Below are positions 14,789 to 60,139 of a stretch of DNA of 64,000 nucleotides, piece after piece. Both the position numbers and the translations under genes were made by a program. The notes beneath the pieces were generated by a model. It saw only the letters and a list, made by a program, of their open reading frames with translations, made no database searches and was not told the DNA's origin. The stretch is from Aureimonas sp. OT7 (GTDB lineage: Bacteria > Pseudomonadota > Alphaproteobacteria > Rhizobiales > Rhizobiaceae), in NCBI RefSeq assembly GCF_014844055.1, contig NZ_CP062167.1:1937501-2001500 (forward strand), given 5' to 3'. Position 1 is the stretch's first letter. Each line of letters starts with the position of its first letter.

Positions 14789-16009
14789 TTGCAGAAGTTC
14801 GATACAGCCATCGAGGCCGTCCACACCTTGCGTCCGGACGTACCCGTCTACTGCTTTAGGCCAGAGGTCCTGGCGCAGGATGCCCGCTCGTTCCTGGAGG
14901 CGTTCCCCGGCGAAACGGCCTATGCGGTGAAAACCAACGGCGAACCGATGGTTCTGGAGACGCTGGCGAAGGCGGGCGTAAAGCTGTTCGACGTCGCTTC
15001 GCCGGGAGAGTTTGCCGCGGTGCGTGCCGTGGCCCCCGATGCCGGCATGCTATACATGCACCCCATCAAGGCGCAGTCCGACATCAGGCTGGCGCTGGAG
15101 ACCTATGGTATCCGGGTCATGTCCCTCGACCATGAGGACGAGGTGGCGAAGATACTGCGCGTCGTGCGCGCGCTGGACATGGATCCCGGAACGATCACCC
15201 TGTTCGTCAGGCTACAGACGAAGGGTCATGCCGCCTACGAACTGTCGAAAAAATTTGGCGCCGCGCCCGCCCACGCGGTCGAGCTGCTGCAACGTTGCCA
15301 CCGGATCGGCTTTCGAACCGGCTTGTGCTTTCATGTCGGCTCGCAGATCGAAGACCCTGAGACCTACGAGCGCGCTCTCGCCTCGGCCGACTGGGTGCGC
15401 AACCGGGCCGATGTGCCCTTGGCCGGGCTGGATGTCGGTGGCGGCTTCCCGGCCGAGTATGGATACGATCCGAAGAGGCGCAAGCCGGACATGCCGGGCT
15501 TTCCGGAGATCATGGCGCGGTTGCGTGCCGACCTCGACGAATGGGGATTTGCGGATGTCCCCCTGGTGGCGGAACCGGGAAGGGTCATCGTTGCCAGGGC
15601 CTTTTCGCTGATCGTGCGCGTGCTGCTGCGCAAGGGGCGCCGGCTCTACATCAACGACGGCATCTGGGCGTCGCTGTCGGATTCCTGGACGGGCAAGATC
15701 ACCCTGCCGGCGCGCTTCATCCCCGATCCGGCGCGCAAGAGGCGCAATGGCGATCCGGGCAACATCGCCGCCTTCAAGGTATGCGGGGCAACCTGCGATA
15801 GCGTCGATATCCTGTCCCGGCCGTTCTGGCTGCCCGAGACGGTGGACACCGGCGACTGGATCGAGATCGGCCACATCGGCGCCTATTCGCTGTCGCTGCG
15901 CACACGCTTCAACGGCTTCTATCCCGATACGTTCGTCCATGTGACGACGCCGTTCGGTGCGGGCGATGCCGCCGAAGGCTATGCCAGCCTGGAGACGATG
16001 GCTGATTGA
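14789..16009 (+). CDS. Type III PLP-dependent ornithine/lysine decarboxylase
   Basis: A 406-residue alanine-racemase-fold decarboxylase of the ornithine/lysine/diaminopimelate group. The PLP lysine lies in AYAVKTN. CFHVGSQ, LDVGGGFPAEY (phosphate-binding glycines), AEPGR and the C-terminal catalytic CGATCDSVDIL (the CGPTCDS motif with Pro to Ala) are visible. Such enzymes make putrescine or cadaverine for polyamine synthesis; the substrate cannot be fixed from sequence. The start is TTG at 14789 preceded by GAGAGAGGG; no in-frame ATG fits. The 3' end is part of a 153-bp tandem repeat, of which this gene holds the first copy intact. Confidence 0.88.
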   Translation: MQKFDTAIEAVHTLRPDVPVYCFRPEVLAQDARSFLEAFPGETAYAVKTNGEPMVLETLAKAGVKLFDVASPGEFAAVRAVAPDAGMLYMHPIKAQSDIRLALETYGIRVMSLDHEDEVAKILRVVRALDMDPGTITLFVRLQTKGHAAYELSKKFGAAPAHAVELLQRCHRIGFRTGLCFHVGSQIEDPETYERALASADWVRNRADVPLAGLDVGGGFPAEYGYDPKRRKPDMPGFPEIMARLRADLDEWGFADVPLVAEPGRVIVARAFSLIVRVLLRKGRRLYINDGIWASLSDSWTGKITLPARFIPDPARKRRNGDPGNIAAFKVCGATCDSVDILSRPFWLPETVDTGDWIEIGHIGAYSLSLRTRFNGFYPDTFVHVTTPFGAGDAAEGYASLETMAD

Positions 16010-16592
16010 GCGTCAGCGCCGGACGTCGCCATCGTCCAGGCCATGGTGATCCAGGATGATCTGGATATTGCGGCGATGCGCCTTGAAGTAGACGTCGAAT
16101 GCATCGCCCACGAAGGGGACCGCGCCGAAGGCGATGCCGGCCTGGAGACGATGGCTGATTGAGCGTCAGCGCCGGACGTCGCCATCGTCCAGGCCATGGT
16201 GATCCAGGATGATCTGGATATTGCGGCGATGCGCCTTGAAGTAGACGTCGAATGCATCGCCCACGAAGGGGACCGCGCCGAAGGCTATGCCAGCCTGGAG
16301 ACGACGGCCGATTGAGCGTCAGCGCCGGACGTCGCCATCGTCCAGGCCATGGTGATCCAGGATGATCTGGATATTGCGGCGATGCGCCTTGAAGTAGACG
16401 TCGAATGCATCGCCCACGAGGGGGACCGCGCCGAAGGCTATGCCAGCCTGGAGCCGATGGCCGATTGAGCGTCAGCGCCGGACGTCGCCATCGTCCAGGC
16501 CATGGTGATCCAGGATGATCTGGATATTGCGGCGATGCGCCTTGAAGTAGACGTCGAATGCATCGCCCACGAGGGGGACCGCGCCGAAGGCG
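15970..16592. repeat. Fourfold 153-bp tandem repeat of a convergent gene junction
   Basis: Four copies begin at 15971, 16124, 16277 and 16430, with an exact 153-base period. Each holds the last 12 codons and stop of the decarboxylase, three bases, then the 3' end (stop plus about 108 bases) of the minus-strand DUF4112 gene. The decarboxylase uses copy 1 and the DUF4112 gene uses copy 4, so both stay intact. CGCCGAAGGC occurs in the decarboxylase (15970-15979) and in DUF4112 (16582-16591), exactly 612 bases apart, marking the likely recombination points. The copies differ by a few substitutions (GCTGAT in 1-2 versus GCCGAT in 3-4; CACGAAGGGG versus CACGAGGGGG). There is no transposase and no spacer structure. 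The 462 bases between the two functional stops are entirely repeat. Confidence 0.95.
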
Positions 16593-16882
16593 GTGTCCAC
16601 GCCGATATTGTACAGCATGGACATCAGCTTGCGCTTCGGCAGGCCAAGCTGCCGCGCCTCGTTGACGATCAGCAGGCCGACAAGGGCGCCTGCGGCGTCG
16701 CCGAAAATCGGCACCATGCCCATCAGCGCATCCGCGCCAAAACGGATGTTGGTGCCAGGCAGGCGCAACGCTGTGTCCATGACGCGCGCCAGCATCGCCA
16801 GGCGGCGGATGCGACGCAGCTTCTCGTCACGGCTCATGCCGCGGACGGCTTCACCCGGAAGAATATATTCGACAGTGGCCAT
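16472..16882 (-). CDS. DUF4112 domain membrane protein
   Basis: A 136-residue protein of the DUF4112 family. Typical features are the basic helix RDEKLRRIRRLAMLARVMDTALRLPG, then IRFGADALMGMVPIFGDAAGALVGLLIV and VDTAFGAVPLVGDAFDVYFKAHRRN. The two IFGDA/PLVGDAFD hydrophobic hairpins suggest membrane insertion. Function is unknown. It converges on the decarboxylase gene, and its last 36 codons lie in copy 4 of the 153-bp repeat, with three further copies beyond its stop. A start at 16882 gives the normal length for the family. Confidence 0.82.
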   Translation of the reverse strand: MATVEYILPGEAVRGMSRDEKLRRIRRLAMLARVMDTALRLPGTNIRFGADALMGMVPIFGDAAGALVGLLIVNEARQLGLPKRKLMSMLYNIGVDTAFGAVPLVGDAFDVYFKAHRRNIQIILDHHGLDDGDVRR

Positions 16883-21872: not shown

Positions 21873-22263
21873 GCCAGCCGGCCGGGCGACCGCTGCCGCA
21901 AGGGCCGAAAGGCCGCGGGAGAGGAAAGTCCGGGCTTCACGGAGAAACGGTGCCGGGTAACGCCCGGCGAGGGTGACCTCAGGGAAAGTGCCACAGAAAG
22001 CAAACCGCCGGCGCGCCGCATGGCAGGCCGGTAAGGGTGAAAGGGTGGGGTAAGAGCCCACCGCGCGCCTGGCAACAGGCGTGGCTAGGTAAACCCCACC
22101 GGAAGCAAAACCGAATAGGAACGACACGGCGTTCGCGCCAGCCTTCTCCGGGCCCGTCGTTCGGGTAGGTTGCTTGAGGCGCGGTGCGAGCCGCGTCCCA
22201 GATGAATGGTCGCCGCCCGGCCGCAGGGCCGGTGCACAGAACCCGGCTTACAGGCCGGCTGGC
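21873..22263 (+). ncRNA. rnpB: RNase P RNA (bacterial type A)
   Basis: The outer helix P1 is formed by GCCAGCCGGCC (21873-21883) and GGCCGGCTGGC (22253-22263). The conserved core GAGGAAAGTCCGGGC lies at about 21921-21935, the ACAGAAA element near 21990, and the 3' conserved ACAGAACCCGGCTTAC near 22237-22252. The length is about 391 bases, normal for alphaproteobacterial RNase P RNA. It is the catalytic subunit that trims tRNA 5' ends. The exact ends are inferred from P1. Its place directly before mraZ is the usual one in rhizobia. Confidence 0.95.
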
Positions 22264-22737
22264 TCCTCGACCCCCAATTCCCGGTCCGTCCGTCACCATG
22301 CGGCCCACGCTCAAGGTGGGCGGCCATGGGACGGCTGCAGCCGCCAGCCCCAGGCACATGAAATATTTCAGTTTTTTACAATGTCCGGAATGCAGCCAAG
22401 CGTGCGCGCGATCCTGACGTTCGCCGCCTATCAGTAGTTTTAAGTATCTGTTTTTACGGCATTTACCTTGGATTGAACGGTGATCCTGATCCGTGGACAC
22501 ACCGGTTTGTGGGGGCAAATCCCATTGACGCCCACGTGATCCCATGGTAAACCAAATGACAATTCGGGGTGCCTGCTTTGGCGGGCAAATATCAGTTCGA
22601 AATTTCGGCATTCGGGCGCGGACGGCGCGGGGTGCGGTGCGTTCATGCGTGCCGCTGCCGGAGGTGCTTTGCCGGATTTTCGCTGAAGCGGGGGTGGCAT
22701 GAGATGCAACCGGTCGGAAAGGCAAGTGTGACGCTTG
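22264..22737 (+). promoter_or_regulatory. Gene-free region between rnpB and mraZ
   Basis: These 474 bases hold no supported gene. An AT-richer stretch at about 22360-22560 contains a candidate promoter: TTGACG (22525-22530), 17 bases, then TAAACC (22548-22553), a weak match at -10. The MraZ-type boxes overlap it. GGAAAGG at about 22716 is the only purine-rich stretch before mraZ. The rest shows nothing I can name. Confidence 0.5.
22510..22544 (+). promoter_or_regulatory. MraZ-type boxes upstream of the dcw cluster
   Basis: Three boxes TCCCA (22520), GCCCA (22530) and TCCCA (22540), read on the minus strand as TGGGA, TGGGC and TGGGA, are separated by exactly five bases. A fourth TGGGG on the plus strand starts at 22510, keeping the ten-base step. 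MraZ proteins bind TGGGN repeats with five-base spacers and repress the dcw promoter in E. coli. The minus-strand orientation here is a point to note. Confidence 0.7.
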
Positions 22738-56086: not shown

Positions 56087-56890
56087 ATGGCCGAATTTCG
56101 GATGTTTCAGGTGGACGCCTTCACGCGAACCCGGTTCGCCGGCAATCCGGCGGCTGTCGTCCTTCTGGATTCATGGCTGCCCGATTCCGTTCTGACGGCG
56201 ATCGCCGCCGAGAACAACCTTGCCGAGACGGCCTTCCTGGTTTCCGCGGCCGAAGACGGGCACGAGCTTCGCTGGTTCACGCCGACGACCGAGGTTCCGC
56301 TGTGCGGCCATGCAACGCTTGCCAGTGCGCTCGTGCTGGCGGACGAGATCGGACTTTCCCCGCCCTTCCGGTTCCACACCCGCAAATCGGGCACGCTGCG
56401 GGTGGACCGTTCGGAGGCGGGGTTCTCCATGCGTCTGCCGCGTCGCAGGGTGGATCCCGGCGGCGATCCGGCCGAAATCGCCGCGGTACTTGGCATACCG
56501 GTTCTGGAAACGCGTTTCGTGCCGGTGGATGGCGACGATACGGTGCTGGCACTGGTTGCCGACGAAGGCGCCCTGATGACCATGCGGCCGGATATCCGCG
56601 CCATCGCGGCACTGGATGCGCGCAGCCTGCTGGTGACGGCGAAGGGCGATAGCGTGGACTTCGTATCGCGCTATTTCGCGCCGCGCTTCGGGATAGACGA
56701 AGACCCTGTCACCGGTTCGGCGCATTGTGCGCTTGCCCCGTTCTGGGCGGCGAAACTGGGCGGGACGACGTTCACCGCGCGCCAGCTGTCCCGACGCGGT
56801 GGCAGCCTGACCTGCCGGCTCGAAGACGATGCCGTCATCATCGGCGGTCAGGCCGTGCTTTATCTGCGCGGTACGATCATCGTCGAATAG
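56087..56890 (+). CDS. PhzF-family isomerase
   Basis: A 267-residue protein of the PhzF/diaminopimelate-epimerase fold. The N-terminal QVDAFTRTRFAGNPAAVVLLD, NLAETAFL with the catalytic Glu47, RWFTPTTEVPLCGHATLASA and DEDPVTGSAHCALAPFWA match the family closely. PhzF isomerises trans-2,3-dihydro-3-hydroxyanthranilate in phenazine synthesis, but most homologues have other, unknown substrates. No phenazine genes are present. Its last 35 codons form copy 1 of a tandem repeat. Confidence 0.9.
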   Translation: MAEFRMFQVDAFTRTRFAGNPAAVVLLDSWLPDSVLTAIAAENNLAETAFLVSAAEDGHELRWFTPTTEVPLCGHATLASALVLADEIGLSPPFRFHTRKSGTLRVDRSEAGFSMRLPRRRVDPGGDPAEIAAVLGIPVLETRFVPVDGDDTVLALVADEGALMTMRPDIRAIAALDARSLLVTAKGDSVDFVSRYFAPRFGIDEDPVTGSAHCALAPFWAAKLGGTTFTARQLSRRGGSLTCRLEDDAVIIGGQAVLYLRGTIIVE

Positions 56891-57539
56891 GGCAGGCGGC
56901 TCCCGCCTCAGACCGGTTGAACGAAGCCGTCCAGCACCCGCTTCTGGCCGGCTTTGTCGAAATCGATGGTCAGCTTGTTGCCTTCGACCGAAGCCACCGT
57001 CCCGTTGCCGAACTTCATATGGAAGACCCGGTCGCCGGTTGTCCCGACGTGGCGGCAGCCTGACCTGCCGGCTCGAAGACGATGCCGTCATCTTCGGCGG
57101 TCAGGCCGTGCTTTATCTGCGCGGTACGATCATCGTCGAATAGGGCAGGCGGCTCCCGCCTCAGACCGGTTGAACGAAGCCGTCCAGCACCCGCTTCTGG
57201 CCGGCTTTGTCGAAATCGATGGTCAGCTTGTTGCCTTCGACCGAAGCCACCGTCCCGTTGCCGAACTTCATATGGAAGACCCGGTCGCCGGTTGTCCCGA
57301 CGTGGCGGCAGCCTGACCTGCCGGCTCGAAGACGATGCCGTCATCATCGGCGGTCAGGCCGTGCTTTATCTGCGCGGTACGATCATCGTCGAATAGGGCG
57401 GCGGCCCGCCTCAGACCGGTTGAACGAAGCCGTCCAGCACCCGCTTCTGGCCGGCTTTGTCGAAATCGATGGTCAGCTTGTTGCCTTCGACCGAAGCCAC
57501 CGTCCCGTTGCCGAACTTCATGTGGAAGACCCGGTCGCC
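56780..57539. repeat. Threefold 253-bp tandem repeat of the phzF-uvrD convergent junction
   Basis: Copies begin at 56780, 57033 and 57286; the third is 250 bases long. Each holds the last 37 codons of phzF, a hairpin in the gap, then about 126 bases of the 3' end of the minus-strand helicase. phzF uses copy 1 and the helicase uses copy 3, so both are intact. CGCC at 56780 in phzF and at 57536 in the helicase marks the joined ends; the 25 bases after each junction match phzF except for four transitions. Copies 1 and 2 have AGGCGG-CTC-CCGCCT in the gap, whereas copy 3 has a form three bases shorter. Copy 2 has ATCTTCGG where 1 and 3 have ATCATCGG. The 520 bases between the functional stops are all repeat. 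Confidence 0.95.
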
Positions 57540-59999
57540 GGCCGCAAAGGCGCTTGCCACCTCGGCCACCGATTTGGCCACCAGTTCTCCCGAGATTTCC
57601 CGGGGGCCGCCGTCGCGGGCGGACGAGTACAGGCCCGCGCCCTTGCGCGGCGGCTGGTTGGAGCCGCGCGACGGGCGCATGGAATGGGCCTCCGTCATGC
57701 GGCCGGCAAAACCGGGCGTGCCATCGTCACGCAGGGTTCCGTCGCGGTTGATGTAACGGTCGGCCTGCGCGGCGGCACGGTCCTGGGCGCTGGTCGGGCC
57801 CTTGTCGGCATAGGCGATGCCGCCGCCGCGTCCGCCGGAATAGCCACCCGCACCGCCTGCCGCCTGGGCGCGCCGCCAGCCCGGCGTCTGGTAGCTCGTC
57901 GTCGAGAAGCTGGACTGGTCCCATCGGCTGGCGCCGTAGCCGCCATAGGTGGACGGCGCCTCGACGACTTCGACATGCTCTTCCGGCAACTCGTCGAGGA
58001 AGCGCGACGGGATGGTGCTCTGCCACAGGCCGTGAATACGCCGGTTGGAGACGAACCAGATCTTCACGCGTTTCTTGCCGCGCGTGAGGCCGACATAGGC
58101 CAGCCGCCGCTCTTCCTCGAGGCCGGAGCGCCCGCCCTCGTCCAGGGCGCGCTGGTGGGGGAACAAGCCTTCCTCCCAGCCGGGCAGGAATACCGTTTCG
58201 AACTCCAGCCCCTTGGCCGAATGCAGAGTCATGATGGAGATCGCGTCCATCTGCTCGTTCTGCTCGGAATCCATGACGAGCGCGATATGCTCCAGAAAGC
58301 CCGGAAGGCTTTCGTAGTCGTCCATGGAGCGGATCAGCTCCTTCAGATTTTCCAGCCGCCCGGGCGCTTCCGCCGACCTGTCGTTCTGCCACATGGCGGT
58401 ATAGCCGGACTCGTCCAGGATCATCTCGGCCAGGTCGGTATGGCGCATGGTGGCCACGAGGTCGCGCCAGCGATGGAAGTTCGCCACCACCTCGGCCAGC
58501 GCGGCACGGGGGCGCGGCTTCAGTTCGTCGCCTTCCAACAGCTCCGCGGCGGCGGCAAGAAGCGGCACCTGCTTGGCGCGCGCATATTCGTGGATCAGCC
58601 GGATCGCAGCTTCGCCGAGGCCGCGCTTCGGCGTGTTGACGATGCGCTCGAAGGCAAGGTCGTCGGCCGGCTGCACGGTGGCGCGAAAATAGGCCAGCGC
58701 ATCCCGGATCTCCAGCCGCTCGTAGAAGCGCGGGCCGCCGATGACGCGATAATTGACGCCGAGTGTCACGAACCGGTCTTCGAACTCGCGCATCTGGAAC
58801 GAGGCGCGTACAAGGATCGCCATGTCGTTCAGCGCATGGCCCTTGCGCTGCAACTGCTCGACTTCCTCGCCGACGGCGCGCGCCTCCTCTTCCGAATCCC
58901 AGCCGGCGTTGACGCTGACGAGTTCGTCCTCGGGGTCGGCCCGCTCGGTGAAGAGGGTCTTGCCGAGCCTGTCCTCATTATGGGCGATCAGGTGGCCGGC
59001 CGCTCCCAGAATATGGGCCGTGGAGCGGTAGTTGCGCTCCAGCCGGATCACGACCGCGCCCGGAAAATCTTTCTCGAAGCGCAGGATGTTATCCACTTCG
59101 GCGCCGCGCCAGCCATAGATGGACTGGTCGTCGTCGCCCACGCAGCACACGTTGCGCGCGCCGTCCTGCCCGGTGCGCTGGGCCAGCAGGCGCAGCCACA
59201 GATACTGGGCGACATTGGTATCCTGGTATTCGTCGACGAGGATGTAGCGAAAGCGCCGGTGATACTCGTCCAGCACGCTCGCATTGTTCTTGAAGATCTC
59301 GATCGGGTGCATCAGCAGGTCGCCGAAATCCGCCGCATTCAACTGGCGGAGCCGCTCCTGGTAGGCCTGGTAGAGCAGGCGCCCCTTGCCATCGCCGAAG
59401 GCGCGGGCGTCACCCTCGGGTATCCGGTCCGGCGTCAGTGCCTTGTTCTTCCAGCCATCCATGAGGTTGGCGAAGGTGCGCGCCGGCCAGCGCTTGTCGT
59501 CGAGGTTTTCGGCCTGGATGAGCTGCTTGATCAGCCGGACCTGGTCGTCCGTATCGAGGATGGTGAAATTCGGCTTCAACCCCACAAGCTCGGCGTGGCG
59601 GCGCAGAATGCGTACGCCAATGGAGTGGAAGGTGCCCAGCCACGGCATGCCTTCGACTTCTTCGCCGACGAGCAGGCCGATGCGCGTCTTCATCTCGCGC
59701 GCGGCCTTGTTGGTGAAGGTGACGGCCAGGATCTGCGAGGGGTAGGCGCGCCCGGTCGCCAGGATATGGGCGATCCGCGTCGTCAGCACGCGCGTCTTGC
59801 CGGTTCCGGCGCCGGCCAGCACCAGAACGGGGCCTTCCGTCGTTTCCACGGCTGCGCGCTGCTCGGGATTGAGCCCGGCCATATAGGCCGCTTCCTGCGC
59901 GGCGGGCGTGCGCGAGCGCATGCCGGCAAGGGCCCGCGCGGCGATCCCCGCCTTGGGTGATGCGGGCGGCGCGCCCGGATTGTCTGAGGAATCGGTCAT
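57411..59999 (-). CDS. uvrD: UvrD/PcrA-type DNA helicase
   Basis: An 862-residue superfamily I helicase. LNPEQRAAVETTEGPVLVLAGAGTGKT has the Q motif and Walker A (62-69). LAVTFTNKAAREMKTRI, TFHSIGVRILRRH, ILVDEYQDTN, VGDDDQSIYGWRGAEV, LERNYRS, IMTLHSAKGLEF and LAYVGLTRGKKRV are helicase motifs Ia to VI in order. The C terminus ends with the Tudor-like PcrA domain (FHMKFGNGTVASVEGNKLTIDF). It acts in mismatch and excision repair. The ATG at 59999 gives MTDSSDNPG; the ribosome site is weak. Copy 3 of the 253-bp repeat holds its 3' end. Confidence 0.94.
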   Translation of the reverse strand: MTDSSDNPGAPPASPKAGIAARALAGMRSRTPAAQEAAYMAGLNPEQRAAVETTEGPVLVLAGAGTGKTRVLTTRIAHILATGRAYPSQILAVTFTNKAAREMKTRIGLLVGEEVEGMPWLGTFHSIGVRILRRHAELVGLKPNFTILDTDDQVRLIKQLIQAENLDDKRWPARTFANLMDGWKNKALTPDRIPEGDARAFGDGKGRLLYQAYQERLRQLNAADFGDLLMHPIEIFKNNASVLDEYHRRFRYILVDEYQDTNVAQYLWLRLLAQRTGQDGARNVCCVGDDDQSIYGWRGAEVDNILRFEKDFPGAVVIRLERNYRSTAHILGAAGHLIAHNEDRLGKTLFTERADPEDELVSVNAGWDSEEEARAVGEEVEQLQRKGHALNDMAILVRASFQMREFEDRFVTLGVNYRVIGGPRFYERLEIRDALAYFRATVQPADDLAFERIVNTPKRGLGEAAIRLIHEYARAKQVPLLAAAAELLEGDELKPRPRAALAEVVANFHRWRDLVATMRHTDLAEMILDESGYTAMWQNDRSAEAPGRLENLKELIRSMDDYESLPGFLEHIALVMDSEQNEQMDAISIMTLHSAKGLEFETVFLPGWEEGLFPHQRALDEGGRSGLEEERRLAYVGLTRGKKRVKIWFVSNRRIHGLWQSTIPSRFLDELPEEHVEVVEAPSTYGGYGASRWDQSSFSTTSYQTPGWRRAQAAGGAGGYSGGRGGGIAYADKGPTSAQDRAAAQADRYINRDGTLRDDGTPGFAGRMTEAHSMRPSRGSNQPPRKGAGLYSSARDGGPREISGELVAKSVAEVASAFAAGDRVFHMKFGNGTVASVEGNKLTIDFDKAGQKRVLDGFVQPV

Positions 60000-60139
60000 C
60001 GCACCATATCTAATGAAATTTGCCGCCAACACTAGGTGAGAACACGGGGAAAGCCCTTTGGCGACCCTCGACAATGTCGCATTCTCGTGGCCTATCTGCC
60101 TTCTGCCGGCAACGCCAAGAGGGAAGGAGGCTGCAAGGG

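What the first reader, a model, noticed from the sequence alone, without database searches (positions are those of the whole stretch)
56780..57539. Threefold 253-bp tandem repeat at the phzF-uvrD convergent junction
The same kind of event as at 15970: the 3' ends of two converging genes and the hairpin between them are repeated, here as 253, 253 and 250 bases. phzF uses copy 1 and the helicase copy 3. The junctions differ from the original phzF sequence by four transitions, and the gap hairpin differs in copy 3. Extra copies of hairpin terminators between convergent genes might strengthen transcription insulation.
Basis: partly seen in the sequence, partly recalled or inferred. Interest (0 to 1): 0.7.

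Follow-up and report, generated by a model that had tools for sequence, protein, structure and literature searches.

The report
Tripled shared tail of facing genes
Where two genes run into each other tail to tail, this bacterium carries three copies of their shared end, and a sample of its genome shows several more such places, nearly all at tail-to-tail gene pairs; the copies look like copying accidents that are kept because both genes stay whole.

Summary
56780-57541 holds three head-to-tail copies (253, 253, 250 bp) of the shared 3' end of phzF and a uvrD/pcrA-type helicase. phzF ends in copy 1, the helicase in copy 3. The host is an unnamed Aureimonas near A. altamirensis (one 4.18 Mb contig).

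The locus is one of a set. In 1.2 Mb of the same genome (60 spaced 20-kb stretches) I found nine more gene-end arrays, about 31 genome-wide by extrapolation. Eight of nine lie at convergent junctions, which are 14.7% of junctions (p about 2e-6). Two complete congeners show none in 0.4 Mb each. Eight of nine arrays tested are single-copy in the closest relative (a draft genome).

Seven of ten arrays have 4-13 bp of microhomology at the junction. Most likely they are microhomology-mediated tandem duplications, some then expanded, kept because a duplication across a convergent junction leaves both genes whole.

The insulation idea is not supported: the gap hairpin has no T-run, and hairpins at array junctions are no stronger than at 95 other convergent junctions. 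Why one lineage collected so many, and whether convergence attracts or merely tolerates them, is open.

The parts
56087..56890 (+). phzF-like gene; its last 111 bp and stop lie in copy 1
   Evidence: PF02567
57411..60074 (-). UvrD/PcrA-type helicase gene; its last 131 bp and stop lie in copy 3 (start codon uncertain, 59921-60074)
   Evidence: PF00580, PF13361
56780..57032 (.). copy 1 (253 bp): live phzF end, hairpin, unused helicase end
57033..57285 (.). copy 2 (253 bp): unused ends of both genes around the hairpin
57286..57541 (.). copy 3 (250 bp plus terminal microhomology): unused phzF end, altered hairpin, live helicase end
56780..56785 (+). left breakpoint microhomology CGCC (CGCC[A/G]G), repeated at 57033, 57286 and 57536
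56894..56908 (.). gap hairpin of copy 1 (6-bp stem, no T-run); same in copy 2 at 57147-57161; altered in copy 3 near 57400
57039..57143 (+). unused second phzF 3' end (third at 57292-57396)
56908..57018 (-). unused helicase 3' end in copy 1 (another at 57161-57271)
15970..16591 (.). second array of the same kind in the window: 153 bp, four copies, at the convergent end of a PLP-dependent decarboxylase gene (14789-16009, +) and a DUF4112 gene (16472-16882, -); 10-bp microhomology CGCCGAAGGC

Best explanation
A tandem duplication formed by pairing of a short identical stretch (CGCC, 4 bp exact, 6 with one mismatch) in the 3' ends of phzF and the helicase, most simply by template slippage or switching during replication. 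A later gain between the now homologous copies made three. It is kept because a duplication across a convergent junction leaves both genes whole: the left gene ends in the first copy, the right gene in the last. The locus is one of roughly 30 such arrays in this genome, of several ages, nearly all at convergent junctions. Shown: the anatomy, the microhomology class, the convergent excess in the sample, single copies at the same junctions in relatives. Inferred: slippage as the step, near-neutral retention as the filter. Not explained: why this lineage has so many.
For: Microhomology read from the printed edges of ten arrays is 10, 4, 8, 8, 4, 0, 8, 0, 0-1 and 13 bp; for 21,200 random breakpoint pairs at convergent junctions of this genome the mean is 0.76 and 4 bp or more occurs in 2.5%. 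The phzF-helicase junction is single-copy in G013 and G014. Of nine arrays tested, eight are single-copy in G013. At the ten convergent arrays the called reading frames run to a stop in the first copy (left gene; at L171 before the array) and in the last copy (right gene). Unused ends carry amino-acid changes, two lost stops and one new stop (38 synonymous, 34 non-synonymous differences in ten arrays), as expected of copies that no gene uses. Gap lengths match those of other convergent pairs (median 17 against 19, p 0.76).
Against: Long direct repeats of 150-500 bp are expected (general knowledge, not tested) to be deleted quickly, yet the copies have diverged (first against last copy of nine arrays: 53 of 2292 coding and 16 of 192 intergenic positions), so simple neutrality must explain persistence. 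Non-synonymous changes in unused ends are about half of what free drift would give by my estimate, and one array (L148 7294, rpoH-like junction) has 13 synonymous to 1 non-synonymous, which suggests conversion between copies or an origin from another strain's allele there. Co-directional junctions with similar gaps should also tolerate such duplications, but only 1 of 11 gene-end arrays is there. Three of ten arrays have no clear microhomology. The lineage contrast rests on samples (nine arrays in 1.2 Mb against none in 0.8 Mb of complete congeners, probability 0.01).
Confidence: 0.6

Rival explanations
1. Selected insulation: the extra copies separate two tightly packed converging genes (stops 17 bp apart become 520 bp apart) and add backup termination zones free of ribosomes, lowering antisense read-through into phzF and the helicase.
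For: Convergent excess (8 of 9 outside the window) and persistence of diverged copies. In E. coli a terminator 5 bp after a stop codon worked at under 10%, and repression ended beyond 27 nt (PMC4824070: abstract in listing, passages), so later copies could terminate where the first cannot. Three of nine array junctions have hairpins in the strongest 13%.
Against: No T-run at this gap; the relative's single hairpin is stronger. Array junctions are neither tighter (p 0.76) nor on the whole richer in hairpin energy (p 0.64) than others. Close relatives manage with one copy.
Confidence: 0.12
2. Orientation-specific formation: converging transcription (positive supercoiling, head-on polymerases) breaks or stalls DNA at gene ends, so duplications form there more often, not only survive there.
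For: 10 of 11 gene-end arrays convergent, 1 co-directional, 0 divergent, against 155:744:156 other junctions. Even with tight co-directional junctions left out of the null, 8 of 9 has p 6e-4.
Against: Survivors, not events, are seen, and selection against duplications in operons and promoters would give the same bias. Complete congeners have converging genes but showed no such array in the samples.
Confidence: 0.15
3. Recombination with another strain's allele: a homologous fragment joined at one end by homology and at the other by microhomology, so the difference between copies was there from the start and the arrays are young.
For: Three of the four phzF differences at the junction are synonymous, and copies 2 and 3 carry the base of both relatives aligned at 56800. 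The L148 7294 array has 13 synonymous to 1 non-synonymous differences.
Against: Other arrays have many non-synonymous changes in unused ends (synonymous to non-synonymous 2:8, 3:6, 1:5). Copies 2 and 3 differ from each other too.
Confidence: 0.1
4. Assembly artefact: unmerged contig ends at hard-to-read hairpins between convergent genes.
For: Period and location fit contig ends at hairpins; reads and sequencing method were not available.
Against: One-contig genome, 100% complete, 0.3% contamination. Three- and four-copy arrays with copy-specific changes, and differences at which the live copy is the derived one, do not fit joining two contig ends.
Confidence: 0.03

Closest known systems
Short-homology tandem duplications of bacterial chromosomes (for example spontaneous rearrangements in Salmonella, PMC3411829; abstract and passages seen)
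   Same: Direct duplication with short identity at the junction
   Different: Those are events within a culture, and their verified duplication junctions had 11 bp or more; these are fixed, short (150-500 bp), diverged, mostly with 4-10 bp, and placed at convergent gene ends
Bacterial VNTR / minisatellite arrays (recalled)
   Same: Head-to-tail copies whose number can change
   Different: Unit is long and is made of the 3' ends of two genes plus their gap; units of different loci show only chance-level matches
Long direct repeats with small toxin genes, LDR type (recalled)
   Same: Tandem repeats of a few hundred bp between genes
   Different: The 253-bp unit holds only two known gene ends; two other arrays seen here (L142, L212/L257) do hold a small ORF per unit
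REP/BIME/ERIC-type dispersed repeats (recalled)
   Same: Hairpin between genes
   Different: One place only in the genome

Membership tests
Microhomology-mediated tandem duplication | Direct head-to-tail copies of a contiguous ancestral segment | tested here: met
   Relatives G013 and G014 have the single segment in the same order
Microhomology-mediated tandem duplication | Short identity between the two breakpoints | tested here: met
   CGCC (4 bp exact) here; 7 of 10 arrays have 4 bp or more against 2.5% expected; 3 of 10 do not
Microhomology-mediated tandem duplication | Formation during replication or repair | not testable with these tools
   needs mutation-accumulation data
Intrinsic terminator array | G+C-rich stem followed by a T-run in each copy | tested here: not met
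   Longest T-run near the gap is 2; no terminator call at the gap hairpin
Dispersed intergenic repeat (REP/ERIC type) | Many copies at unrelated loci | tested here: not met
   1 place in the genome; units of 12 arrays unrelated beyond short weak matches
Type I toxin long direct repeat | Conserved small ORF with ribosome-binding site in each unit | tested here: inconclusive
   Gene calls in the unit are only the two known gene ends; no dedicated small-ORF test was made at this array; small ORFs are found in other arrays
Reverse-transcriptase-made copies | A reverse transcriptase in the genome | tested here: not met
   0 matches of PF00078 in this genome; 6 of 20 genus genomes have a match, 5 over the cut-off

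The most novel reading that the evidence does not exclude
Convergent gene ends are an active site of tandem duplication or are selectively padded in this Aureimonas lineage: an orientation-specific process has put 2-4 copies of shared 3' ends at about one in sixteen convergent junctions, lengthening the space between converging transcription units.
Probability: 0.27. Interest if true: 0.75.

Novelty: new variant of a known kind. Interest (0 to 1): 0.45.

Why it matters
Tandem duplications are known, but a lineage-specific set so concentrated at convergent gene ends would make it possible to ask directly whether converging transcription creates duplications, whether spacing between converging genes is selected, and why long direct repeats persist. 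If only tolerance is at work, the set is still a natural record of which duplications a compact genome can keep.

Tried and rejected
Reverse transcription of read-through RNA: no reverse-transcriptase match in the genome. Dispersed or mobile element: single place, units unrelated. Preference for tight gaps: none (one search used 20 bp for this array, another the correct 17). Preference for strong hairpins: none overall. Plasmid source: no match in the plasmid collection at the 'near' setting. RNA family: in the window, L142, L171 and L148 only RNase P at 21874-22266.

L142 was left out of the gene-end counts because each unit holds a small ORF. The G013 array L212 (convergent junction, 3.9 copies) was left out for the same reason; its first copy also covers the last 26 bp of the left gene, so this one is arguable, and if counted G013 has one in 340 kb. 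The automatic microhomology lengths are wrong for arrays with indels (L132 331, L132 14501, L151, L166) and read 2 for this array, so I use the edges printed. L171 and L142 were left out of the microhomology list (edges too decayed).

Rows dropped before counts: TRF rows of period under 150 (L123, L127, L149); self-matches in this genome inside single genes or at 64-77% identity, and L148 11559 at 89% inside one long gene (L123, L138, L159 2073, L168). In the relatives I looked at twelve weaker direct matches again. Ten lie in or between paralogous genes or inside one gene. Two are intergenic repeats at convergent junctions without copies of gene ends: L034, right behind the same helicase gene in Aurantimonas aggregata (103 bp, 87%), and L041 in Phyllobacterium leguminum (114 bp, 81%). 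Other weak matches in relatives (65-72% identity) were not looked at again. Three junction-adjacent differences are dropped in the adjusted 38:31 ratio.

Paper searches that listed no report of such arrays: (an open-licence library only; listings read, two papers by passages).

Full report
What is there. The window lies in a one-contig genome of 4,181,223 bp. A GTDB contig holding a close helicase locus is Aureimonas altamirensis A31 (97% identical protein), and an unnamed congener, G013, is closest (98%), so the organism is an Aureimonas near A. altamirensis; its name was not given. Tandem Repeats Finder reports 56780-57541 with period 253 and 3.0 copies. In register the copies are 253, 253 and 250 bp. 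Each holds the last ~110 bp of phzF, a gap of 17 bp (14 in copy 3) with a small hairpin, and the last ~130 bp of a UvrD/PcrA-type helicase gene on the other strand. phzF stops in copy 1, the helicase in copy 3.

Ancestral state. In G013 (L003) and G014 (L005) the two genes meet with one short gap and one copy. The triplication is therefore derived in this genome. The breakpoint joins ...GGTCGCCGG of the helicase to TTGTCCCGACG of phzF through the shared CGCC. The first of the four transitions equals the helicase-side base at the breakpoint. The other three are synonymous in phzF; at 56800 copies 2 and 3 have the base of both relatives aligned and copy 1 is the derived one, and at 57522 copies 1 and 2 are derived and copy 3 ancestral.

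Not alone. Besides the two arrays of the window, ten arrays of period 150 or more appear. One, L142, proved to be of another kind (a small ORF in triplicate). The other nine repeat gene ends: L122 17780, L132 331 and 14501, L148 1092 and 7294, L151 10099, L159 16099, L166 11433, L171 6947. By a codon-usage gene caller of my own and Pfam the flanking genes include an aldo/keto reductase, YkuD and IalB, a GFO/IDH/MocA oxidoreductase and mnmA, an rpoH-like sigma factor (name from recall) and an FG-GAP protein, cobO and an RDD protein, a trypsin-like protease and a sulfate permease, a fasciclin protein, rpsT and an outer-membrane beta-barrel. The L132 331 array was first miscalled co-directional by the gene caller and was reassigned when the aldo/keto reductase ORF on the minus strand was found. 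At L171 the unit holds the end of the beta-barrel gene but not that of rpsT.

Junction type. Eight of these nine are at convergent junctions, one (L122) is co-directional, none divergent. With the window's two it is 10 of 11; counting L142 as a miss, 8 of 10 outside the window and 10 of 12 in all. Among the other junctions called in the sample 155 of 1055 are convergent, 744 co-directional, 156 divergent (a looser call gives 179 of 1140). The one-sided binomial p is 1.7e-6 for 8 of 9 and 7.4e-6 for 8 of 10; with a null that leaves out co-directional pairs closer than about 95 bp it is 6e-4 and 2e-3. Gap lengths of nine convergent arrays match those of other convergent pairs (median 17 against 19, p 0.76), so orientation, not closeness, sets them apart. 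Extrapolation gives about 31 gene-end arrays in the genome.

Relatives. No gene-end array was found in two complete congeners, G003 and G006 (400 kb each), 160 kb of G011, 100 kb of G017, or 0.98 Mb of 80 order-level loci around the same helicase (mostly drafts). In 340 kb of G013 there is one array (L212), which I count as another kind because each unit has a small ORF, though its first copy also covers the last 26 bp of the left gene. Twelve weaker direct matches in relatives were looked at again: ten are paralogues or within genes, two (L034, L041) are intergenic repeats at convergent junctions without gene ends. The probability of none in the 0.8 Mb of complete congeners, given the rate here, is 0.01, so lineage specificity is likely but not overwhelming. 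The orthologous junction is single in G013 for 8 of 9 arrays tested; at the ninth (L171) G013 has two decayed copies (L261). L166 and L122 were not tested: for L166 the loci were withheld, for L122 no search was made. G013 is a draft, and a draft can collapse near-identical repeats.

Age and history of the copies. Between first and last copies of nine convergent arrays 53 of 2292 coding and 16 of 192 intergenic positions differ, against 22.5% (371 of 1648) at fourfold sites between this genome and G013 in seven genes. The arrays are thus younger than that split but not fresh. Differences between live and unused ends are 38 synonymous and 34 non-synonymous in ten arrays, or 38:31 without three junction-adjacent ones. 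Free drift of the unused ends with constrained live ends would give roughly 1.5 non-synonymous per synonymous (my estimate from a 75:25 site ratio). The deficit, and the 13:1 ratio at L148 7294, suggest exchange between copies or, there, an allele from another strain.

Mechanism. Microhomology at the junctions read is 10 bp (window 153-bp array), 4 (this array, 6 with a mismatch), then 8, 8, 4, 0, 8, 0, 0-1 and 13 (L132 331, L132 14501, L148 1092, L148 7294, L151, L159, L166, L122). Random breakpoint pairs have a mean of 0.76 and reach 4 bp in 2.5% and 8 bp in 0.03% of 21,200 trials. Breakpoints lie 24-292 bp inside the genes in the nine convergent arrays where both are defined. Short-homology pairing during replication or repair, followed in some by a further gain between copies, is the simplest account; verified spontaneous duplication junctions in a Salmonella culture had 11 bp or more (PMC3411829, passages), longer than most of these. 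A duplication that spans a convergent junction leaves both genes intact, which would let it persist. That filter alone may give the orientation bias, because duplications in operons or promoters change expression; but I cannot separate it from biased formation.

Insulation. A terminator directly behind a stop codon is repressed by the ribosome and one further away is not (PMC4824070, passages), so additional copies could in principle terminate better than the first. At this locus the gap hairpin has no T-run and is not called as a terminator, and the single-copy relative has a stronger hairpin. Copy 3 folds worse than copies 1 and 2 in short windows but better in 60-nt windows. Hairpins at nine array junctions are on the whole not stronger than at 95 other convergent junctions (p 0.64), though three of the nine are in the strongest 13%. 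I therefore keep insulation as a minority reading.

Verdict. A real, derived tandem triplication of a convergent gene end, one of a likely lineage-specific set with a marked orientation bias. The kind of event is known; the set and its bias I did not find in eight searches of an open-licence library.

Noticed in passing
L142:17780-18748 (G000 about 2187780-2188748): Intergenic array of three ~357-bp units, about 84% alike, each with a ribosome-binding-like site and a conserved 29-aa basic ORF (MVLPIVITLHIRK...); no Pfam match for the two copies scanned. Candidate small-protein or toxin-like gene array.
   Followed up: partly
L257:2286-2837 and L212:8602-9808: Shared array at a convergent junction, two copies here and four in G013 (~300-bp units); each unit has a 22-24-aa minus-strand ORF (MFVKLRKVVLRIRVFGW...) behind a GGGGGTG stretch in most copies, and a complementary GGGGGTGATGTT / AACATCACCCCC pair. 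Looks like a multi-copy small-protein locus with changing copy number.
   Followed up: partly
L004:4187-4978: In A. altamirensis A31 (G011) the same phzF-helicase gap holds a Fic-family gene (PF02661) and a 67-aa ORF, a toxin-antitoxin-like insertion at the same convergent junction.
   Followed up: partly
L148:7294-8315: Two 511-bp copies at the rpoH-like sigma factor junction differ by 13 synonymous and 1 non-synonymous coding changes, with a strong hairpin and T-run in each; copy 1 is often the derived one.
   Followed up: partly
L122:17780-18370: The only co-directional gene-end array: squalene/phytoene synthase-like 3' end plus the start of the next gene, 289 bp twice, 13-bp microhomology.
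   Followed up: no
L034:7638-7981 (Aurantimonas aggregata): Intergenic pair of 103-bp palindrome-bearing repeats (87% alike) between the same helicase gene and a converging neighbour; looks like a dispersed-type repeat, not copies of gene ends.
   Followed up: no
L266:2459-2865 (G017): 102-bp palindrome-bearing units, 3.5 copies, between fpg and a ubiE-like gene: a different, divergent-junction repeat.
   Followed up: no
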